Of a stretch of DNA of 20,931 bases, positions 823 through 20,327 are shown piece by piece. Origin of the DNA: a virus; the IMG/VR virus record IMGVR_UViG_3300035698_035316, positions 1 to 20,931 of that record, one strand, 5' to 3'. A program made the position numbers and the translations under genes. Each line of letters starts with the position of its first letter. Position 1 is the first letter of the stretch. The notes beneath the pieces were generated by a model. It was not told the origin of the DNA, did not search any database, and saw nothing but the letters and a program-made list of their open reading frames with translations.

Positions 823-1488
823 ATGATTTTACATATTCCACATTCAAGTGTAAATACGTTAGGACGAAATATTGAAAAGTTTGATATTGATTATTTAACG
901 GATTGGTACACAGATGAATTATTTCAACATACTGATTCAGATAGGGTTGTATTTGATATTTCCCGTTTTGTTTGTGATGTTGAAAGATTTACTGATGACA
1001 AAGAAGAAATGGTCAAAGTGGGACACGGAATTTCTTATACTAAAGGTACTAGAAATAATGATATTGCACCTATTGATAAAGAAGAAATATTAAGTTATTA
1101 TTATAAACATCATACCAAGTTGAATAAATTAACCGCTAAAACCTTAGCATATTTCAATAGTGTTGTTGTGGTTGATTGTCACAGTTTTCCAAAGGATATG
1201 TCAGATTTTGATTTTTGTATAGGGTTCAATGAAGAATCTGCACTTAATAAAGAAATTATTGAGTATATCAGAAATAATGGGTATACAGTAGGTGTCAATT
1301 CGCCTTATTATGGATCTTTAGTACCAACTAATTATATAAATGATTCAAGAGTTGAATCCGTTATGATTGAAGTTAATAAAAAATTATACCTTAATGAAGA
1401 TATGAGTAAATCCCCATATTTTTTTGAACTTAAAAAATTTATAAATAATATTTTAGAAATTATTTCAAAATATGAGAACAGATTATGA
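823..1488 (+). CDS. N-formylglutamate amidohydrolase-like enzyme
   Basis: The 221-residue product carries the usual landmarks of the N-formylglutamate amidohydrolase (HutG/FGase) family. These are an N-terminal LHIPHSS segment, an SRFVCDVERF segment (residues 48-57) matching the family's SR..vDvNRf motif, GHGISYTKGTR (67-77), VVDCHSFP (117-123, with the family's D-H-S signature) and a late MIEVNKKLY segment. Bacterial members hydrolyse N-formyl-L-glutamate in histidine breakdown and are zinc-dependent. A phage has no obvious use for that pathway, so another formyl or amide substrate is possible. AAGGAA lies 10 bases before the ATG. The stop codon overlaps the next start as ATGA, implying translational coupling. 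Confidence 0.72.
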   Translation: MILHIPHSSVNTLGRNIEKFDIDYLTDWYTDELFQHTDSDRVVFDISRFVCDVERFTDDKEEMVKVGHGISYTKGTRNNDIAPIDKEEILSYYYKHHTKLNKLTAKTLAYFNSVVVVDCHSFPKDMSDFDFCIGFNEESALNKEIIEYIRNNGYTVGVNSPYYGSLVPTNYINDSRVESVMIEVNKKLYLNEDMSKSPYFFELKKFINNILEIISKYENRL

Positions 1489-3127: not shown

Positions 3128-3580
3128 ATGAGTTTTAGTGATTTTTTAAAAGAAACTACCCAAAAAGGTACATATGCAGCTGTAAAGTTTTCTGATCTTA
3201 CAAATCATTATTTAATGAACCTAATTAAAGAATTAGATATTGAAAATCCAGTTACAGTGGACGATTTACATTGTACATTATTATACAGTACTAAATATTT
3301 ACCTAATTATAAACCTATTGGTGAAATTAGAGAAATTGCAAGACCAAAAGGCTTTGAAATTTTTGAAGGTGATACTAATTATTTAGTATTATTGTTGAAT
3401 TGTGAATTTTTAACAAAGAGACATAAATATTTAATGAAAAAACATGGAGCAAAATATTCACATGACGAATATAAACCACACATTACATTGAGTACAGATT
3501 ATAGTGGAGCCTTACCAACACTTATACCAAGTGAGTTTATAGTATTAAATAATGAATATTCAGAAGATTTAAACGACTAA
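3128..3580 (+). CDS. 2H phosphodiesterase, Acb1/T4 57B-like anti-CBASS candidate
   Basis: The 150-residue product has the two histidine motifs of the 2H phosphoesterase superfamily: HCTLLYS (His48, Thr50) and KPHITLS (His118, Thr120), 70 residues apart. The length, the N-terminal DFL...YAAVKFSD segment, the LHCTLLYS-KYLPNY context and the HGAKYSHDEYKPHITLS segment resemble T4 57B, now known as Acb1. Acb1 degrades cyclic oligonucleotides made by CBASS immunity and so blocks effector activation. The gene follows gp44 after 9 bases and lies in an early-type block. General RNA 2',3'-cyclic phosphodiesterase activity is the main alternative. The 2H family call is firm; the Acb1 assignment is from remembered similarity and needs alignment. 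Confidence 0.72.
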   Translation: MSFSDFLKETTQKGTYAAVKFSDLTNHYLMNLIKELDIENPVTVDDLHCTLLYSTKYLPNYKPIGEIREIARPKGFEIFEGDTNYLVLLLNCEFLTKRHKYLMKKHGAKYSHDEYKPHITLSTDYSGALPTLIPSEFIVLNNEYSEDLND

Positions 3581-8752: not shown

Positions 8753-9742
8753 ATGAGAGATTTTATTTTTAGCGATGGGTACTTTTTTAAGTTCCTTAGA
8801 ACATTTTTATTTGCTGTATTGTCGATGTTTATTTTTACATTGCTAATTATTCAAATTGAAGACTTTAGTTATGGTGACGCTTGGTGGTTGGCATTAAGTT
8901 CAATCACTACGGTTGGTTATGGTGACCTTTCAGCAAGTACTGGGTTAGGCAGAACGATTTCCGTTATATTCCTATACATACCATCATTGGTGTTGATTGG
9001 AGTTGTGTCAGGTAATATAATTGAATTTTTTATCGAGAAAAGAGAGAATAAGAAGATGGGAAAAGTTAGTTTTGAAAATATGCAAAATCATATTGTCATA
9101 GTAAATGTACCAGATATTAACACGGAAAAATACTTAACAATGATGAAAGACCAAATTGATAATTCAAAAAATCTAAAAGGTAAAAAAGTCATCATTTTAA
9201 GTGACCATTATTCAGGTATTGGATTACCGGCATCTTTACGTGATTGGAAATATGTGGATGGTGTTGGACTAACAAAATCAGATTTGTTAAAAACGGGGTT
9301 TAAATTCGCTGATTACATTTTCATTTTTGGAGTTTTTGTGAAGTGTGATAGCGATACACTAATGACATTAATGAATATTAAAAAGATTGGAACAACTGCA
9401 CGTATTATTAGTGAATATACGGATAATGAAGGTAAAGAACTATTATTAGAAAATGGTTGTGATAATGTTATTCGTCAAGTTCGGGCATATCCTGAATTGA
9501 TTGTTCGAACCGCTGATATACCTGGAAGTGAAAAGATTTTTGAAAATTTATTCGATTTCAATGGGCAATCTATTACTGTTATTCCTAATCAAAAGGAACA
9601 AACATGGAAAGAAATTTGCACTGAATTTATTACTCTTGAAAAAGGTATTCCACTCGGTTATAATACAGATAATGATGTTATATTAAATCCTAAACACGAC
9701 ATCACTATTGGTAATGGTGTATCAATTTTCGTAATGCTTTGA
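8753..9742 (+). CDS. Two-helix potassium channel with cytoplasmic RCK domain (MthK-like)
   Basis: The 329-residue product begins with a transmembrane helix (about 14-35) and a pore helix, then the canonical K+ selectivity filter TTVGYGD (52-58) and a second transmembrane helix (about 69-92). A linker leads to an RCK/TrkA-N Rossmann-type domain from about residue 112. That domain shows the order of strands seen in MthK: NHIVIVNV, KVIILSD, a GLTKSDLLKTGFKFADYIFIFG unit, the DSDTLMTLMNIKKIG helix and RIISEY. A smaller TrkA-C-like region occupies about 270-329. The first Rossmann loop lacks GxGxxG, so NAD binding is doubtful and an ion or another ligand may gate it. It should act as a tetramer in the host inner membrane. 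AAGG lies 7 bases before the ATG. Confidence 0.9.
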   Translation: MRDFIFSDGYFFKFLRTFLFAVLSMFIFTLLIIQIEDFSYGDAWWLALSSITTVGYGDLSASTGLGRTISVIFLYIPSLVLIGVVSGNIIEFFIEKRENKKMGKVSFENMQNHIVIVNVPDINTEKYLTMMKDQIDNSKNLKGKKVIILSDHYSGIGLPASLRDWKYVDGVGLTKSDLLKTGFKFADYIFIFGVFVKCDSDTLMTLMNIKKIGTTARIISEYTDNEGKELLLENGCDNVIRQVRAYPELIVRTADIPGSEKIFENLFDFNGQSITVIPNQKEQTWKEICTEFITLEKGIPLGYNTDNDVILNPKHDITIGNGVSIFVML

Positions 9743-10774: not shown

Positions 10775-10804
10775 AGAAACAAATGAATCAAATGAAGGAT
10801 TACA

Positions 10805-11524
10805 ATGTCAGAACACATAACAAATTTTGAAAATATTTTAATTAATAAACTTATCAATTCAGGCGAGTTTTTTGGTAAAGTATTACCAATTATCAAACCA
10901 AAATATTTCAATAACCCAGGAAATCAAGAAGTTTTCACCCTCATCAAAGGGTATTATTCAGAATACAGAGATATTCCATCATTAACTGAATTAGTTGCAC
11001 AAGTAAAAAATGTTGCAAATTCTGAAATCCGATCTGAAATAGTTAAATCTCTTAAAGAAGCAAATTCTGTTTCAGAAGTAACTAATATCAAATTCATGAT
11101 TAAAGAAACAGTTTCATGGATTCAAGATGCCTTATATACAGAAGCTTTGATGAAAGGTTCTGATGGATTGATGAAGAAAGATGAAAAACTGAAATTAGAA
11201 GCTAAACAGTTAATGGAGGAGATGTCAAAAGTTTCTGTTGACTCTGAGCTTGGGCTAGATTTTGATGATATTGATGAAATGATTGCGTATTATTCAGAAA
11301 GAATGTTAGGTATCAGGACGCAACATAAAGAACTTAATAAACGTTTAGGTGCTGGTTTTTTACCTGAAACATTATCACTAATATTAGCGGCATCCGGAAT
11401 TGGTAAATGTAGTAAATCAACTGATTATATAAATATATTTTTAGATGTCACCCATTACGATATTTACAAGGAAAAATTAGATGACATCAGAAGTAAGAAG
11501 GATATTAAAACGAAAGCTATTTAA
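10805..11524 (+). CDS. 41: Replicative helicase gp41, N-terminal fragment fused to a 38-residue N-intein
   Basis: The 239-residue product comprises an N-extein of 201 residues and an N-intein of 38. The extein has the DnaB-like N-terminal helical domain and linker of T4-type helicases and runs into the ATPase domain, ending in LILAASGIGK, the first seven residues of Walker A. Then comes Cys202 (TGT at 11408), the first intein residue. The chain stops at 11522 in all three senses: extein incomplete, intein incomplete, and next gene already begun at 11481. Alone it cannot bind ATP. With the fragment at 12706-14079 it would rebuild a 526-residue helicase (T4 gp41 has 475). AAGGA precedes the ATG. 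The helicase call is strong because of the C-terminal partner. Confidence 0.85.
   Translation: MSEHITNFENILINKLINSGEFFGKVLPIIKPKYFNNPGNQEVFTLIKGYYSEYRDIPSLTELVAQVKNVANSEIRSEIVKSLKEANSVSEVTNIKFMIKETVSWIQDALYTEALMKGSDGLMKKDEKLKLEAKQLMEEMSKVSVDSELGLDFDDIDEMIAYYSERMLGIRTQHKELNKRLGAGFLPETLSLILAASGIGKCSKSTDYINIFLDVTHYDIYKEKLDDIRSKKDIKTKAI
11408..11521 (+). other. N-part of an atypically split intein (38 residues)
   Basis: The segment starts with the nucleophile Cys1 directly after GIGK and continues CSKSTDYINIFLDV, matching block A in position. It lacks block B, which is found instead in the C-part. Canonical split inteins (DnaE, gp41-1) have N-parts of about 90-100 residues, so this belongs to the rarer class with short N-parts, as in AceL-TerL and the metagenomic VidaL inteins. 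The chain is charged and Lys-rich at its end (DDIRSKKDIKTK), possibly for electrostatic pairing with the acidic start of the C-part. Confidence 0.8.
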
Positions 11525-12752
11525 AGATTTGAAATGGAATTTTACAGAATTGAAAGAATTGTATAATTTTGTTTCAAAAACAACTAATTACACAAATTCA
11601 ACATATCAACGTATATATAATTTTAAACTGAATAATGTGAAGTTTTGGTATAGAAGATTAAAAAGACTTCAAACAAGGGGTAGTAACGTAAACGATATGC
11701 TGAATTTTTATTTAAGATATGGGAAAAATGGGGTACTTAAATATAGGAAATATTTGGATAAAGTTCGGGAATCATCTTCTAAAGAAGGTCTTATTGCTCG
11801 GTTCGGCTACGAAAAAGCCAATCGCATCAATCACGCAAGAGGGAAATCATTTAGGAATTCTGATATTCAACGTCAAAATTCATTGAAATTAAAGATAAAA
11901 AAGATGGAAACACCTGAGAAGTATGTTGGTATGTTGCCGACACAGTTAGAATATTATTTAAACAGAGGGTTTTCAGAAAGTGAAGCGAAAACCGAGTTGA
12001 GTAAAAGGCAACGAACCTTTTCTTTGGAAACATGCATTAAAAAATACGGGAAAATAGAGGGAACTGTTGTGTTTAACGAAAGACAACGTAAATGGATGAA
12101 CACGTTGAATAGTAAAACACAAAATGAAATAGATGACGTTAATAGACGTAAAAATGCATGTCTAATTCGAAATGATGAAACAAAGGACGCATATTTTAAA
12201 CGGCTATGTAATATTGGAAAAGTTTTGATTTACGATGACGAGGATTTGAGAAAATATATTGTTGAAGAATTAACAAAATCTAAATGGAAATATCTTACTA
12301 GAGATGAATTCGTTAACAAACTTCCGTTTTTTGGTAATGCGAAGACCCATCCTTGCCAAATATTAGAAACGTTAAGTTTTAAATTCCCAAATAAAAATCA
12401 AATATTTAAAAACGGTAGATGCTACACCCTAACTGTACCCGAAGGATATCTAAGGTCTTCTATTGAGATAGACTTCTATTTCAATTTAAAGGATAGAAAT
12501 GTACCGTTCACTTTAGAGAAACTATACTTAAACCAAACAAAGCATAAAACGGATTTCTTTATCGAAGAATTTGATTTGTACATTGAAATCGCAGGTACTT
12601 TGAATAATACTGAATATAATGATAAAATGAAAATGAAAGAGTCTAGATATGACGCTTTGATTTTAACCCCGAAATTAATTAAACCATTTTTTAAAAGGAT
12701 TGACAATGCAGGATTTAAAGGGATTAAAAGTTACATACGAGGAATTATTTGA
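11481..12752 (+). CDS. Freestanding nuclease between the helicase halves (putative homing endonuclease)
   Basis: The 423-residue protein is read in a third frame and overlaps the end of the N-intein by 44 bases and the start of the C-intein by 47. AAGGA lies 8 bases before its ATG. Residues about 70-215 hold basic helical modules of a type common in phage homing enzymes, with repeated YG...G...F..R elements (YLNRGFSESEAK, KRQRTFSLETCIKKYGK, NERQRKWMNTLNSK). The C-terminal part has the acidic core of a Vsr-like/PD-(D/E)xK fold: EIDFYF (Glu329), KTDFF (Asp358), DLYIEIAG (Glu369), where the usual Lys or Asp after the Glu is replaced by Ala. Dassa and colleagues described a Vsr-like EDxHD homing family in fractured split-intein genes; this is a probable relative. 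Target and activity are unproven. Confidence 0.7.
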   Translation: MTSEVRRILKRKLFKDLKWNFTELKELYNFVSKTTNYTNSTYQRIYNFKLNNVKFWYRRLKRLQTRGSNVNDMLNFYLRYGKNGVLKYRKYLDKVRESSSKEGLIARFGYEKANRINHARGKSFRNSDIQRQNSLKLKIKKMETPEKYVGMLPTQLEYYLNRGFSESEAKTELSKRQRTFSLETCIKKYGKIEGTVVFNERQRKWMNTLNSKTQNEIDDVNRRKNACLIRNDETKDAYFKRLCNIGKVLIYDDEDLRKYIVEELTKSKWKYLTRDEFVNKLPFFGNAKTHPCQILETLSFKFPNKNQIFKNGRCYTLTVPEGYLRSSIEIDFYFNLKDRNVPFTLEKLYLNQTKHKTDFFIEEFDLYIEIAGTLNNTEYNDKMKMKESRYDALILTPKLIKPFFKRIDNAGFKGIKSYIRGII

Positions 12753-13101
12753 GCTTTTAGAATTTTCCCAAACAGATTTTAATAAGGCACAGTATAGTGA
12801 TAAACCATTATACGTAGAATCTCCATCAGGTTATGTAAAAATTCGTGGTGGAGTTATCAAAAACGATTTAGATATGCATAATTTAAAATTTGATGATGGT
12901 TCCGAATGTAACGTTGCGGACACTCACATATTTTCCGTTGAAGGGCAAGAAGTATTTGCAAAAGACGCAGAATTCGTGGATAGTAAACACGGTCGTTTGA
13001 ATATTACTGAAAGGTTAGACATTGGCAAACATCATGGATATGATATCAATATTGATGCCCCACATTGGTATTATGCACCGAATGGTGCGATTTATCACAA
13101 C
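12706..13101 (+). other. C-part of the split helicase intein (132 residues, holds blocks B, F and G)
   Basis: Block B is visible as ECNVADTHIFSV, with the conserved His but Ala in place of the usual Thr of TxxH. Blocks F and G are GYDINIDAPHWYYAPNGAIYHN followed by Ser+1, with the standard penultimate His and terminal Asn. Total intein length is 170 residues (38 + 132), a mini-intein size without an internal endonuclease. The nuclease function is instead in the separate gene at 11481-12752. The first residues are acidic (YEELFELLE), opposite to the basic end of the N-part. Confidence 0.85.
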
Positions 13102-14079
13102 TCGTTATTAATGACTGATTTAATTTCAGGAATGGTTAAAGACAATAAAAATATTCTTTTAGTTTCTCTTGAAATGGCTGATAAAGAAATTATGAAACGG
13201 GTTCATGCCAATGCAATGGATTTACCTATTAATTCTTTAATAGATTTGAGTAAAACTGATGGTGAGATGAAACAAATCATGGAAGATGATCCTATGCACG
13301 TTAGGGTTACAAAAGAAATGGTTAAAAGTGCTTATAATAAAATTAAGTCATCAGGAACTTGTGGTAAGTTCTTTGTAAAAGATTATCCAACTGGTTCCTT
13401 TTCACCATTAATGCTTGAACAATTAGTTGAATCATATAAGATTGAAAAGGGTATTGAATTTGATGCAGTTTTTGTTGATTATTTAGGTATTATGAAGTCA
13501 GATTTGATTTCACCAAGTGCCGGTTTATATTCTTATGTTAAAAGTATTGCTGAAGAATTACGTTCTGTTGGAGGTAAGTTAAAATTACCAATTATTAGTG
13601 CAAGTCAGTTAAATCGGAGCGCAGTAAATAATACCGATGATGCAGATAACTCATCTGTTTCAGATTCACTTGGTTCAGTAATGACAGCTGATTGGATGCT
13701 TTTTTTACTTCAAGATGATGAAATGAAAGAACGTGGGGAGATTGTTGCTAAGTGTACTAAAAACAGGTTCAACGGTCGTACAGATACGTGGATGATGAAT
13801 ATTGACTATAGTCATATGAGATTTTCAGATATGCTGATTCAAGATGCCACCAGTATTAACGAAGTTTCATCATTTAACACATCGAAGGGGCTTGATGATG
13901 ACTTTGGAATTGTAACTGCAGATAAACAAAAACATGCAGAAAACTATGCAAATACTGAAGTTAAGAACATTGTTAGAAATGATTATGAAATTCTAAATAA
14001 ATCAACACCGCCCGAAGCTAAAGACCCTTTTAATAACGATATTAACGATATTTTCGCCGAATTAGGTATTGGGGATTGA
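12706..14079 (+). CDS. 41: Replicative helicase gp41, C-terminal fragment preceded by a C-intein
   Basis: The ATG at 12706 is chosen because AAAGGA (12694-12699) lies 6 bases before it, whereas an upstream TTG at 12700 touches that site. The product has 457 residues: a 132-residue C-intein (12706-13101) and a 325-residue C-extein beginning with Ser+1 (TCG at 13102). The extein supplies the rest of a DnaB-type RecA ATPase: the Ser that completes Walker A, LLVSLEMA, Walker B AVFVDYLGIM, the SASQLNRS motif and the KNRFNGRTDTW arginine-finger region. After trans-splicing the P-loop reads AASGIGKS. The role is 5'-3' unwinding at the fork with primase and polymerase. It is followed by the DUF3310-like and polymerase genes. 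Confidence 0.88.
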   Translation: MQDLKGLKVTYEELFELLEFSQTDFNKAQYSDKPLYVESPSGYVKIRGGVIKNDLDMHNLKFDDGSECNVADTHIFSVEGQEVFAKDAEFVDSKHGRLNITERLDIGKHHGYDINIDAPHWYYAPNGAIYHNSLLMTDLISGMVKDNKNILLVSLEMADKEIMKRVHANAMDLPINSLIDLSKTDGEMKQIMEDDPMHVRVTKEMVKSAYNKIKSSGTCGKFFVKDYPTGSFSPLMLEQLVESYKIEKGIEFDAVFVDYLGIMKSDLISPSAGLYSYVKSIAEELRSVGGKLKLPIISASQLNRSAVNNTDDADNSSVSDSLGSVMTADWMLFLLQDDEMKERGEIVAKCTKNRFNGRTDTWMMNIDYSHMRFSDMLIQDATSINEVSSFNTSKGLDDDFGIVTADKQKHAENYANTEVKNIVRNDYEILNKSTPPEAKDPFNNDINDIFAELGIGD

Positions 14080-14377: not shown

Positions 14378-17300
14378 GTAAATTATTTGAAGGAACATAC
14401 CGCGATGGATATGTAACATACGAACGTTACTTTGATGAGGTTTTAAATGATTCTTTTGTAAGTAAAGTATCTGTGCCGAGTGAGCATTATGTTGAAGATA
14501 GAGAAGGTAAATTCGAGTATTTATTAGATTCGAATGTTCGGTTATCTAAACGTTATGGTAAACCTACTGAAAGTATTACGTATGGTAAAAACACTCAAGA
14601 CTCAATTCATATTCGGGATAATTATTGGAAGTCAGAAAATAGTTTATACAATATGAATCCAAGGAAGTGGTACATAGATATTGAAACAACTGCACACAAT
14701 AAAATTAATGTATTTGAAGTTGCAGAAGAAGTTGTTTTGATGCAGATTTATGACTCCGTCACTGAAACGTTAATATTATTAGGTACACGTGATTGGACGG
14801 GGCAAGAAAATTATGAATATGATTTTAAAGTTAGATATATTAATTGTAAAAATGAAATTCAACTATTTGAAACATATTTCACATTGATTGCAAGAATGAA
14901 ACCACTAATCGTAATGGGGTGGAATACTAATGGTTACGATTATCCATACATGTACAATAGAGCAAAGAAATTAGGATTAGACACGAATAAATTCAGTCCA
15001 TTCAACAAAGTCAAATTAGATATGAAGACAGTTAAATTTAGGGACACATTTAAGTTGATTGCTGATGGCATAATCTATATGGATTACTTAGAAATGTATC
15101 AAAAATATACGTTTAAACCCCGGGCAAGTTATTCGCTTGATAACATTTCATTTATAGAACTTGGTGACAGAAAAATTAATCATGATATGTATAGTACGTT
15201 TGATGGTATGCGAACAGGTGAAAATTACATTTTTCCTGAAACTGAACCTGAAGATGAATATGATAAAAAAATGTATAACTTACAAATGCAATACAAAAAC
15301 AACCCAACTAAAGAGTTAAAGGAAAAAATTCATGATTTAGCCAACGATTTATTTGTTCATTATGGCTGTATTGATACGCATCTTGTTAAAAAATTAGATG
15401 ATAAACTACTTCTAAGTAATGTTTTAATCATGATTGCAAGTAAAATGGGTGTGAACATCAATGATGCCATGGGCACAGTAAAACCTTGGAGTTCTTATAT
15501 AAACAACGTTGCTTATTTAGAAAAAATGATTTTGCCGAACTTAGATGTTGATGAATCAGAAATTCCAATCAAAGGTGGTTATGTTGCAGAACCACAAAGT
15601 GGTAAACACGATTGGGTTGTTTCAGTTGATATTGATTCAGCGTATCCAAACTTATCAATGCGTGGATTTAATATGAGTGCTGAAACATATGTTAAACCAA
15701 AAGATTTACCACCTGAAATGAGAGATTTAAATTTAGCGTATTTTAATAATGAAGATGAAGAAGCCCGTTTTGAAATGTATTTAAAAGAACCTGAAATATT
15801 TGAACGCTATTCACAATTAGCAGAAGAACATGGGTTTTCTTTAGGTATTAATGGTGCAGTCTTTTCCCAAAAAACACTAGGAATAATTCCTCGACTAGTC
15901 AAAGAAATATATATTGATAGACAAAAACAAAAAGCCGAAATGAATGAATGGGCCAAAAAAGCCGAAAATTTAAAAGAAACAATGGGGAATAATAAAAAAC
16001 TTATTGAAGAATATAAACATTCCGTTTATATGGCACAACAATGTGACACAGGACAAAAAGTGGCTAAAGTTTTAATCAACTCACTTTACGGTTGTTTAGG
16101 TAATAAGTATTTTAGATTGTTCAACGAAAATATTGCAAGGGCAGTCACTGGCAATACCCGTTTCTATATTCATTTACTTAATCTTAGAATCAACAATTAT
16201 TTAAAAGAAAAAACAGGTATCGACAAAGATTTTGTGGTTTATAACGATACGGATAGTGTTGTTGGGTCAACGGTAGTTAGGACATCACAAGGTGACATTA
16301 AAATTGAAGACTTATATGATGTAGTTCCTGGTGAAATAACTGTAAGGGATTCTGATAATTTTATTAAAAAACCTTTTATTAAAATAAGGGCGGATAGTGT
16401 AAGTGCTGATAAATGTCTTCAACAAAAAAATATAAAATATATTATGAAGCATAAAGTTAAAAAAAGAATGTTTAAAATTAAACATAAAGATTCCGAAGTT
16501 ATAGTTACCGAAGATCATTCAATCATTATTTCAAGATGTAATGAATATATTTCAGTGAAACCATTAGATATTATTAAAGGTGATAAAATTATTTGTATAA
16601 ATGAAAAAATGAATGATTTAAAAGAGTTTGAAGAGTTTGAAGAGTTTGAAGAGTTTGAAGTAATTGATTTAGGCATACAAGAAAATTGGGTATATGATAT
16701 TGAAGTTGAAGATAATCACAATTTCTTTGGTAATAATATACTTGTGCATAACAGTGCGTATATCACGTTAGCTGATGTTGTTAATAAATATTATAAGGGT
16801 GAAAAAACCGCGGTTAAAATAACTGAATTCTTAGACAATTTAATTAAAGCTGAATTAATGCCGATTGTGCAAAGTTGCAATGATGAGCTTTCAAAATGTT
16901 TAAATGCTTATGAAAGTGAAGCAATTAGTACATCACGTGAAGCTATTGCGGATAAAGCAGTATTCCTTAATAAAAAGAAACAATATTTCATGCGAATATT
17001 TGATTTAGAGGGTGTGAAATATACTGAAAATGACCCATATATTAAAAAAATGGGGATTGATATTATCAAATCTGGAACCCCAGAATTTGTTAAAACCCAT
17101 TTGAATCATAGTATAGAAATTATTCTTGATAGTGATGAAAAAGAAATGCGGGAATGGTTGAAGACTGTTAAAGAACAGTTCATGCATGTTCCAATTGTGG
17201 AAATTAGTAAAGGAACAGGTGTTTCAAGAACCGATTATGATTTAAGTGAAAAGAGTGTGCCTATGAATAGTAGAGCAGCGATTTCGCATAACGTCTATTT

Positions 17301-18495: not shown

Positions 18496-18518
18496 TAGTA
18501 ATATTATATGTATGAACC
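18482..18518. terminator. Hairpin between convergent genes, overlapping both stop codons
   Basis: CATACACATA (18485-18494) pairs with TATATGTATG (18505-18514) with one non-Watson-Crick position, and the stem extends by GGT/ACC past a single bulged A. The loop is about 10 bases. It spans the TAG of the rightward gene and the TAA of terminase. T-runs are absent, so it may serve as a bidirectional mRNA end and not an ideal intrinsic terminator. Confidence 0.45.
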
Positions 18519-20327
18519 ACCATCCTCAACTGCATAACCATTCCATGTTTTGGGTGATGTGCTATCGTCATCATCTGAACCATCATCAAAATTCCCAATA
18601 GCTAAATTATCACCAAAATTAAACTTTTCTTCATCGGATAAATCATCATTGTAAAGGTTTTTAACTAGTGATTTCATATCTTCAAAGTTTTTTGAATTGA
18701 CAAACGGTGAAAACACTAATGCTAGTGACATAATCATATCATCATGACAACCATCATCAGCTTGATACTTATTGTTAATTAATATGAATTGAAAGAATTC
18801 GTTAATAGTTAATGAATCGTTTATAGTTATCTTTTTATTTTCAATAAATAATTTTAGAGTTTGAAGTATCTGTTTTCTACTTTTCTTTGTTGTTCTAAAC
18901 CCTGGATATTTTTTCTTTTTATTCCGCCCTACATCTTTATCATAATGAAGATTTTCATACTCATAATCATTTTTCATTTGGTCTGCAATTGATTGACCAG
19001 CTCCTTCATTATTTTCTATAATTAAATATGGATTATTATACAATTCGCACCATTCATTAATAAATTCAGGCATTAATAAATAATCAATCTGTAATTTAGC
19101 TGTGGCAACTTGCTTAAAGTGAAAATCCGTGATATCAACAATTTGGACAGCAAAAGCATCTTGGCCATCTTTAGCTGCATCTACTGTAAATATATATTTA
19201 TGATTTTTGATTGGATATTCATAAATATTTAATTTTCCATCACGCATTTCTTCAATTTCAGCACTTTCCATTAACTTCAACCTATCGGAACTGATTAAGG
19301 TGTGTGATGAACCAATAGCTTCATTTAAATAGTTCTGATTAAAATATAAAATACCGTACTTGTTTATAACAGAATCCATAAAAGATTCAGGGGAAATTTC
19401 TTCTCCTTGCTTATTATATCTAGGTACCTCGCTCCATTTAGCTTCATGGAAGTGGTATTCATCACTTTTTTTAGCCTTATTTACTATGTCATACCAGTGA
19501 TTTAACCCTTTCATCGTACTGGTCATTATTGTTTTTTTCCATGCTAGTGCGCCCTGTGCGGGGAATACTGCATCTTCAAAATCAACCCATGAACTATTCT
19601 TTACCCATGCAACTTCATCTAAATATAAACAATTTACTGTGTACCCACGAAAACTATCCCCATTGGTACTATCTGTTAAAATTTTCACACCGTTTTCAAA
19701 TTCAACAAATGTTTTATTCCAAGATAACACACCAGGCATCATCCAAATTGGTAAACCTAAGAAAATATTTTTAATTTTGTTTAAAATCTCTTTGGCAGAT
19801 GAATTCCTATTTGCCGCGATACCAATTAAAATATCAGGTTTAAAGATTGCTAACCATAATAAATAAATACCAGCAACAACTGATTTACCACTCTGTCGTG
19901 ATTGAAGACTTACAACAGCTTCTTCATCAACCATCGCATCTAAATATTCAACTTGATATGGACGTAATTCAGGATAATTCGTGCCATTTTTAGTCACAAT
20001 TTTGCAATAATTACCCATAAAATAATGAATATCATCCATACATCTTTGAATTTCTTCTTCATGGATAGGCAACAAATCTAACTTTACATTCGCACCCTTT
20101 AATGTGATAATACCCTTATATGATATTTTATCACCGAAAGAATTTTGGTAGTAACCTTCTTGATGTTTTGACATATCAAGTAATTCAAAAGCTAGTTTTT
20201 TACCGGAGTTCCCAAATGAACGAATTTCTGTCAATAAATCATATGTAAGTAAATCTTTATTACTCTTTAATTGTGATATTACATCGTTAGTGAAGATTTC
20301 TTTTATTTTTGTTGCATTTTTGCTCAT
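18504..20327 (-). CDS. 17: Large terminase subunit gp17 (packaging ATPase and nuclease)
   Basis: The 607-residue protein equals T4 gp17 in length (610). The ATPase half has the adenine-binding LRPYQVEYL, Walker A SRQSGKS (143-149), Walker B CLYLDE (Asp237, catalytic Glu238) and the coupling motif TSTMKG (269-274). The RNase H-like nuclease half has Asp383 (FTVDAAKD), Glu438 (LIIENNEGAG) and Asp529/Asp530 (GCHDDM). It cuts concatemeric DNA and drives it into proheads as a portal-bound pentamer. A TATAAATA late box lies upstream. I see no clear Shine-Dalgarno before the ATG, so initiation may be weak. No intein is present, though terminases of related phages can carry one. Partner gp16 is not in the window. 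Confidence 0.95.
   Translation of the reverse strand: MSKNATKIKEIFTNDVISQLKSNKDLLTYDLLTEIRSFGNSGKKLAFELLDMSKHQEGYYQNSFGDKISYKGIITLKGANVKLDLLPIHEEEIQRCMDDIHYFMGNYCKIVTKNGTNYPELRPYQVEYLDAMVDEEAVVSLQSRQSGKSVVAGIYLLWLAIFKPDILIGIAANRNSSAKEILNKIKNIFLGLPIWMMPGVLSWNKTFVEFENGVKILTDSTNGDSFRGYTVNCLYLDEVAWVKNSSWVDFEDAVFPAQGALAWKKTIMTSTMKGLNHWYDIVNKAKKSDEYHFHEAKWSEVPRYNKQGEEISPESFMDSVINKYGILYFNQNYLNEAIGSSHTLISSDRLKLMESAEIEEMRDGKLNIYEYPIKNHKYIFTVDAAKDGQDAFAVQIVDITDFHFKQVATAKLQIDYLLMPEFINEWCELYNNPYLIIENNEGAGQSIADQMKNDYEYENLHYDKDVGRNKKKKYPGFRTTKKSRKQILQTLKLFIENKKITINDSLTINEFFQFILINNKYQADDGCHDDMIMSLALVFSPFVNSKNFEDMKSLVKNLYNDDLSDEEKFNFGDNLAIGNFDDGSDDDDSTSPKTWNGYAVEDGGSYI

What the first reader, a model, noticed from the sequence alone, without database searches (positions are those of the whole stretch)
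10805..14079. Replicative helicase gene fractured inside its P-loop by a split intein, with a nuclease gene in the gap
The helicase is encoded as two separate genes whose junctions read GIGK^Cys1 and HN^Ser+1, so ligation gives an uninterrupted Walker A (AASGIGKS). The two halves are in different frames and a third frame encodes a 423-residue nuclease that overlaps both. This fits the 'fractured gene' arrangement reported by Dassa and colleagues in marine metagenomes. In this phage the consequence is strict: neither half can bind ATP, so DNA replication should require protein trans-splicing.
Basis: partly seen in the sequence, partly recalled or inferred. Interest (0 to 1): 0.85.

Follow-up and report, generated by a model that had tools for sequence, protein, structure and literature searches.

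The report
Phage helicase gene split in ATP-site
A phage's essential DNA-unwinding enzyme is encoded as two separate genes, interrupted exactly in its ATP-binding loop, and must very probably be joined after translation by a split protein-splicing element, with a DNA-cutting enzyme gene sitting in the gap; this is one example of an arrangement found here at about 60 places in phage genomes.

Summary
A T4 gp41-type helicase is encoded as an N-half (201-aa extein + 38-aa IntN) and a C-half (132-aa IntC + 325-aa extein; true start ATG 12706), broken at GIGK^Cys1 / HN^Ser+1. A 423-aa nuclease ORF overlaps both. The ligated 526-aa protein aligns end to end with intact relatives, without a gap at the junction.

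The intein is not of the gp41-1/gp41-8 type: it is atypically split (short IntN, long IntC), nearest in sequence to the engineered Cat intein. IntN is divergent but clearly homologous to that of another phage helicase split at the same codon. The nuclease is of PD-(D/E)XK/Vsr fold, nearest I-Bth0305I, but lacks the EDxHD histidine.

A scan keyed only on the nuclease showed the context: 58 of 66 distinct nucleases sharing its central module lie directly upstream of an atypical IntC. Where the junction could be read, 50 of 51 lie in a canonical P-loop (helicase, terminase, PhoH, Clp, SbcC-like, UvsW-like) and the 51st in a variant P-loop.

Trans-splicing and homing remain inferred, not shown. 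New variant of a known kind.

The parts
10795..10799 (+). Shine-Dalgarno-like AAGGA of the N-half
   Evidence: sequence
10805..11407 (+). N-extein: DnaB/gp41 helicase N-terminal part up to AASGIGK (201 aa)
   Evidence: phrog_19 E 3.9e-29, Pfam DnaB 2e-4 just below cut-off; alignment to intact relatives
11408..11524 (+). IntN, 38 aa from Cys1 (CSKSTDYINIFLDV...) plus stop
   Evidence: in frame with N-extein; 7/10 identical, ungapped, to the IntN of same-site helicase L079, 0 of 10,480 decoys
11468..11472 (+). Shine-Dalgarno-like AAGGA of the nuclease ORF, inside the IntN coding region
   Evidence: sequence
11481..12752 (+). nuclease ORF, 423 aa, overlapping both helicase halves
   Evidence: relatives
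11928..12176 (+). shared module of the nuclease (about residues 150-232, core FSLETCIKKYGKIEG...RQRKW), probably DNA-binding
   Evidence: conserved in 66 other distinct nucleases
12417..12731 (+). nuclease catalytic domain (about residues 313-417): Glu329 or Asp331 region, Asp358, Glu369, Lys386
   Evidence: D358, E369, K386 invariant in A5; Foldseek best hit I-Bth0305I 3r3p; VIA-align Z 6.3-6.9 to VRR_NUC, I-Bth0305I, TnsA, Vsr
12695..12699 (+). Shine-Dalgarno-like AAGGA of the C-half
   Evidence: sequence
12706..13101 (+). IntC, 132 aa, ending His-Asn
   Evidence: Cat intein 6dsl E 0.0035; 55% to L018, 43% to vB_VmeM-32; model of the C-half hits gp41-1 intein 6qaz at E 1e-3
13102..14079 (+). 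C-extein: helicase C-terminal part from Ser+1 of the P-loop (325 aa plus stop)
   Evidence: Pfam DnaB_C 4.8e-16, phrog_19 1.3e-45, T4 gp41 8dtp E 1.3e-7 by fold

Best explanation
The gp41-type replicative helicase of a T4-like phage is made as two polypeptides. Each carries one piece of an atypically split class-1 intein: a 38-aa N-piece starting at Cys1 and a 132-aa C-piece ending His-Asn. The pieces assemble, Cys1 and Ser+1 act as nucleophiles, Asn132 cyclises, and the exteins are ligated into a 526-aa helicase with an uninterrupted Walker A motif (AASGIGKS). The nuclease ORF in the gap is a homing endonuclease with a shared, probably DNA-binding, module and a PD-(D/E)XK/Vsr catalytic domain. 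It most likely cuts intein-less alleles so that the intein-plus-nuclease block is copied in by repair. The fracture most likely arose when a nuclease gene replaced a short loop-coding stretch near the N-end of a contiguous intein. Shown here: anatomy, homology, purifying selection, recurrence, and a contiguous/fractured pair in a related system. Inferred: splicing, cleavage, homing, direction of the change.
For: (1) The ligated sequence matches intact helicases through the junction in 17 loci. (2) IntC: Cat intein in PDB, HMM, intein fold in the model (gp41-1 intein 6qaz E 1e-3; DnaB inteins 6bs8 and 6rix). (3) IntN homologous to that of L079. (4) Same-site intein in L018 with Thr+1; gp41 of vB_VmeM-32 and L031 fractured three residues upstream (GVN or PVN ^ TGKS) by related inteins. 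(5) Purifying selection: pN/pS 0.22/0.64 (N-extein), 0.21/0.73 (C-extein) against L002; 0.29/0.80 (IntC) against L018. (6) 58 of 66 distinct module-bearing nucleases sit just upstream of an atypical IntC although the scan used only the nuclease; 50 of 51 readable junctions rebuild GK[ST]. (7) Campylobacter phage CP20 has a contiguous TerL intein; in F379 the same intein (92% and 95% identical flanks) has 47 nt replaced by about 1.16 kb carrying a module-bearing nuclease. (8) Nuclease D358, E369, K386 invariant; best structural hits are I-Bth0305I, Vsr, TnsA and VRR_NUC.
Against: No splicing, cleavage or homing was observed. Against the general block A profile of 47 IntNs the window's IntN scores below all of them: the Thr found at position 6 in 37 of 47 is Asp here, and position 2 is Ser instead of hydrophobic. 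The block B Thr is Ala in IntC (shared by close relatives). The nuclease lacks the His of EDxHD and its structure model is poor (mean pLDDT 53.7; catalytic part about 75-82), so its fold match is suggestive only. No second locus with the complete IntN-nuclease-IntC set of the window's own helicase clade was found (L018 is cut at the contig edge). Nuclease and IntC divergence correlate only weakly (Mantel r 0.22, p 0.0014), so the pair is not strictly co-inherited.
Confidence: 0.85

Rival explanations
1. The intein has decayed and no longer splices; the helicase halves are relics, or work as a non-covalent two-chain helicase, and an intact gp41 copy exists elsewhere in the genome.
For: IntN block A is divergent (Asp6, Ser2); the record is a 20.9-kb fragment, so a second copy cannot be excluded.
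Against: All three reading frames are open over 3.3 kb; pN is far below pS for both exteins and for IntC; helicase positions invariant among relatives are kept; phage records with this helicase almost always hold one copy (2,497 records, 2,499 places); a break inside the Walker A loop leaves no half able to bind ATP by itself.
Confidence: 0.09
2. The nuclease is not a homing enzyme for this site but a free-standing nuclease gene that landed in the intein by chance; the split intein is maintained only by the helicase's need.
For: Module-bearing nucleases also occur without an adjacent atypical IntC (8 of 66, e.g. Caulobacter phage Cr30 beside an intact terminase); in L031 the gap holds a flagellin gene instead of a nuclease; weak nuclease-IntC co-divergence.
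Against: 58 of 66 distinct module-bearing nucleases lie in the gap of a fractured gene; catalytic residues conserved; patchy presence of the intein among close relatives fits mobility, though it also fits loss.
Confidence: 0.25
3. The interruption is removed at RNA level (self-splicing intron carrying a nuclease gene) or bypassed by programmed frameshifting.
For: Introns with nuclease genes are common in T4-like phages (established knowledge).
Against: No Rfam match, group I or II introns included, anywhere in the window; the extein frames run on into intein-homologous protein on both sides, which an RNA intron would not require; the N-half ends in a stop 1.2 kb before IntC begins.
Confidence: 0.02
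4. Assembly or chimera artefact.
For: Metagenomic contig; single copy.
Against: Same kind of arrangement in the cultured phages vB_VmeM-32 (gp41) and Campylobacter F379 (TerL) and in many IMG/VR contigs; flanks are phage-consistent.
Confidence: 0.02

Closest known systems
Fractured genes with split inteins and inter-genic endonuclease (Dassa et al. 2009; paper not held, known from citing papers)
   Same: Host gene in two pieces, each with an intein half; nuclease gene in the gap; phage replication gene (gp41).
   Different: Here the split is atypical (short IntN) and in the P-loop; the nuclease has a PD-(D/E)XK core without the EDxHD histidine and carries a module shared across many ATPase genes.
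Atypically split inteins AceL-TerL / GOS-TerL and the engineered consensus Cat (6DSL)
   Same: Short IntN, long IntC; Cat is the best PDB hit of IntC.
   Different: Host is a gp41-type helicase, not terminase; IntN 38 aa with unusual block A (Asp6) and block B (Ala).
gp41-1 / gp41-8 naturally split inteins
   Same: Same host protein family; fold hit to the gp41-1 intein structure 6qaz.
   Different: gp41-1 is listed as split at the endonuclease site (about 100 + 40 aa; PMC11923092). The site SQLNR^S, gp41-8's from memory, is uninterrupted here; it is interrupted in relatives L019-L022.
Mycobacterial DnaBi1 and phage TerL1-a P-loop inteins
   Same: P-loop insertion; TerL1-a between Lys and Thr, DnaBi1 with the P-loop Ser as catalytic residue (PMC6195587, PMC5050341).
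   Different: Those are contiguous genes; this one is split, with a separate nuclease gene.
I-Bth0305I / EDxHD homing endonucleases
   Same: Best Foldseek hit of the nuclease model (3r3p); D...E...K core.
   Different: His of EDxHD absent in the window's subgroup (GTLNN, FGLLNGK); low-confidence model.

Membership tests
Fractured gene arrangement | One host protein encoded by two genes whose ligation restores the ancestral protein | tested here: met
   Continuous alignment with 17 loci
Fractured gene arrangement | Split-intein pieces at the junctions | tested here: met
   IntN and IntC homology
Fractured gene arrangement | Endonuclease gene in the gap | tested here: met
   423-aa ORF with nuclease core residues; relatives in gaps
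Atypically split intein (AceL/Cat type) | Short IntN, long IntC holding block B and C-terminal blocks | tested here: met
   38 + 132 aa; Cat hit E 0.0035
Atypically split intein (AceL/Cat type) | Cys/Ser1, block B His, penultimate His, terminal Asn, Cys/Ser/Thr+1 | tested here: met
   Cys1, His74, His131-Asn132, Ser+1
Atypically split intein (AceL/Cat type) | Block A like most members (Thr at position 6; present in 37 of 47, so usual rather than strictly defining) | tested here: not met
   Asp6; score below all 47 IntNs of the set; but homologous to the L079 IntN
Atypically split intein (AceL/Cat type) | Trans-splicing activity | not testable with these tools
   needs co-expression
gp41-1/gp41-8 (typically split) inteins | Split at the endonuclease site, IntN about 100 aa, IntC about 40 aa | tested here: not met
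   38 + 132 aa
EDxHD homing endonucleases (I-Bth0305I) | Catalytic E, D, H, D residues of the name | tested here: not met
   Acidic residues and Lys present, the His of GxxxH absent in the window and in L051, L057, L077
EDxHD homing endonucleases (I-Bth0305I) | Vsr-like fold | tested here: inconclusive
   Foldseek E 0.19, prob 0.87; VIA Z 6.5, tied with Vsr, TnsA, VRR_NUC; poor model
T4 gp41 / DnaB (SF4) replicative helicase | DnaB_C domain and P-loop after ligation | tested here: met
   Pfam 4.8e-16, phrog_19 1.3e-45, 8dtp fold hit

The most novel reading that the evidence does not exclude
The window belongs to a widespread, P-loop-specialised mobile partnership: a nuclease with a common module plus an atypically split intein has colonised the Walker A codons of at least six families of phage ATPases (helicase, terminase, PhoH, Clp, SbcC-like, UvsW-like), so that replication, packaging and repair in many phages wait on protein trans-splicing. 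The nuclease module, not only selection on the protein, steers insertion to P-loop sites.
Probability: 0.3. Interest if true: 0.8.

Novelty: new variant of a known kind. Interest (0 to 1): 0.62.

Why it matters
It ties an essential enzyme's active site to protein trans-splicing in a way that cannot be bypassed by either half alone, and places the case in a previously scattered but, by this scan, coherent class. The class supplies dozens of natural short-IntN split inteins (useful for protein labelling) and a contiguous/fractured pair (CP20/F379) in which the origin of split inteins by nuclease-gene insertion can be tested directly. It also asks why P-loops are the near-exclusive site: stability against precise deletion, or a targeting preference of the nuclease.

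Tried and rejected
Single-sequence scans of IMG/VR with IntC and with the nuclease found nothing; only alignment queries worked. Scoring IntN against a general block A profile left it below every known member and against most single IntNs gave no significance; the same-site helicase IntN of L079 resolved this. An RNA intron was tested and rejected. A PDB sequence search with the nuclease found nothing, nor did Pfam. The helicase tree did not resolve where window and L018 sit among intact relatives, so homing against loss could not be separated. Dassa 2009, Taylor 2011, Stevens 2018 and two JBC papers on split inteins are not held, so statements about them rest on citing papers or memory.
Full report
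Anatomy. The reading frames are as described. The N-half runs 10805-11524; its first 201 residues are the N-terminal part of a DnaB/gp41 helicase and end AASGIGK, then Cys1 (11408) begins a 38-residue tail. The C-half is best started at ATG 12706, six bases after AAGGA, giving a 132-residue IntC ending His-Asn and a 325-residue extein beginning with the Walker A Ser. A third ORF, 11481-12752, with its own AAGGA, encodes 423 residues and overlaps the N-half by 44 nt and the C-half by 47 nt.

Is it a real fracture? Ligating the exteins gives 526 residues that align over their whole length with helicases encoded by single genes in 17 loci at 60-70% identity, with no gap at the junction. Phage records of this family almost always hold one such gene (2,497 records, 2,499 places). 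Both exteins and IntC are under purifying selection (pN far below pS; dS is saturated, so exact ratios mean little).

Is it an intein? IntC's best PDB relative is the engineered consensus atypically split intein Cat (6dsl, E 0.0035). It is 55% identical to an IntC at exactly the same helicase position in L018 and 43% to one in gp41 of the cultured Vibrio phage vB_VmeM-32, where the break lies three residues upstream. The AlphaFold model of the C-half is weak (mean pLDDT 55) but Foldseek returns T4 gp41 first (8dtp, 1.3e-7) and the gp41-1 intein as best intein hit (6qaz, 1e-3), with DnaB inteins below it. IntN needed more care. Against a block A profile of 47 IntNs from other fractured phage genes it scores below all of them, because the Thr common at position 6 is Asp. 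But against IntNs of helicases split at the same codon, L079 matches 7 of the first 10 residues without a gap, and none of 10,480 Cys-anchored decoys does as well. So IntN is homologous but divergent; whether that affects splicing is unknown.

The nuclease. Sequence searches of Pfam and PDB found nothing convincing. A family alignment shows invariant D358, E369 and K386, a PD-(D/E)XK pattern. The structure model is poor overall (53.7) but the catalytic domain is modelled at about 75-82 and its best Foldseek hit is I-Bth0305I (E 0.19, probability 0.87); VIA-align gives VRR_NUC, I-Bth0305I, TnsA and Vsr at Z 6.3-6.9, which are tied. The His of the EDxHD name is absent here and in the closest catalytic relatives (L051, L057, L077), but GxxxH is present in others that share the module. 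Catalytic domains vary around a constant module: one relative in a TerL gap has a T5orf172-like domain just below cut-off.

The wider class. Searching IMG/VR with the nuclease alignment alone gave 113 loci, of which 80 were kept. Together with phage records fetched before and leaving out the window itself, there are 66 distinct nuclease ORFs with the module; 58 are followed on the same strand by an ORF beginning with an atypical IntC (HMM E < 1e-8), typically overlapping by a few bases. Among the loci fetched through the helicase (L002-L022, L029), only L018 gave such an IntC hit. In 51 the upstream IntN could be located; joining the exteins restores GK[ST] in 50, and the 51st (F379 terminase, RQSSKS) is a variant P-loop. 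The junction finder looked for P-loop-like residues before Cys, so it favours such cases; the seven not located show downstream sequence of the same kinds. Host genes by Pfam: DnaB-type helicase, T4-type terminase, PhoH, ClpA/B-type AAA (both P-loops in L077), SMC/SbcC-like and ResIII-type (UvsW-like) helicase. The window's exact site in a helicase recurs in L044, L047, L067, L079, L080 and L111, and by its downstream sequence in L063. Nuclease-module and IntC divergence are only weakly correlated over 56 loci (Mantel r 0.22, p 0.0014).

How it arose. Campylobacter phages CP20 and F379 carry nearly the same terminase intein; in CP20 it is contiguous, while in F379 47 nt of it are replaced by about 1.16 kb holding a module-bearing nuclease. 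This is a natural contiguous/fractured pair, although the direction of change is not proved. The window's break lies nearer the intein's N-end than that of F379 (before, not after, the first helix; reading of the alignments), so the fractures are probably independent.

Verdict. Ordinary in each part (P-loop inteins, atypical split inteins, inter-genic nucleases are all known), unusual in combination, and part of a class that this scan suggests is large. Experimental splicing and cleavage are the missing steps. I found no paper in the held library describing this nuclease-module/P-loop class, but the most relevant papers are not held, so I do not claim it is unknown; a 2025 paper reports a large unrecognised outgroup of EDxHD/Vsr-like phage nucleases with repeated accessory domains (PMC12350094), which may overlap with it.

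Noticed in passing
L031:3069-3932 (IMGVR_UViG_3300021087_000107): A complete flagellin gene (Pfam Flagellin_N 2.6e-39, Flagellin_C 4.3e-18) sits in the gap of a split-intein-fractured gp41 gene, where relatives have a nuclease.
   Followed up: partly
L077:1859-7292: Clp-type ATPase with both of its P-loops fractured by atypically split inteins, each with its own nuclease: three gene pieces needing two trans-splicing events.
   Followed up: partly
window 16255-16752: Contiguous 166-aa mini-intein (Ser1 ... His-Asn, Ser+1) in the family B DNA polymerase at DTD^S, without endonuclease.
   Followed up: partly
window 8753-9742: Phage-encoded potassium-channel-like protein with TVGYGD filter and RCK-like domain (Pfam Ion_trans_2 3.6e-9).
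   Followed up: partly
window 3128-3580: Anti-CBASS protein Acb1 homologue (Pfam PF23474, E 2.5e-31).
   Followed up: partly
window 823-1488 and 227-742: N-formylglutamate amidohydrolase-like protein (E 2.7e-32) and an HD-domain protein next to each other.
   Followed up: no
L019:2081-6177, L020, L021, L022: Same helicase clade interrupted at SASQLNR^ (gp41-8 site from memory) by a typically split intein; two further ORFs in the gap of L019, and a BspA-like repeat ORF begins after the N-half of L021.
   Followed up: partly
L018:2930-5257 (- strand): Terminase with a contiguous intein outside the P-loop, on the same contig as the same-site helicase IntC; the window's terminase (18504-20327) is intein-free.
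   Followed up: partly
L023:715-2697 (Vibrio phage vB_VmeM-32): UvsX (RecA-like) also in two pieces with intein parts and a SegG-like ORF between them, so two fractured genes lie side by side in this phage.
   Followed up: no
L025:3584-6302 (Caulobacter phage Cr30): Module-bearing nuclease directly upstream of an intact terminase with no intein: possibly a remnant or an intermediate of the class.
   Followed up: no
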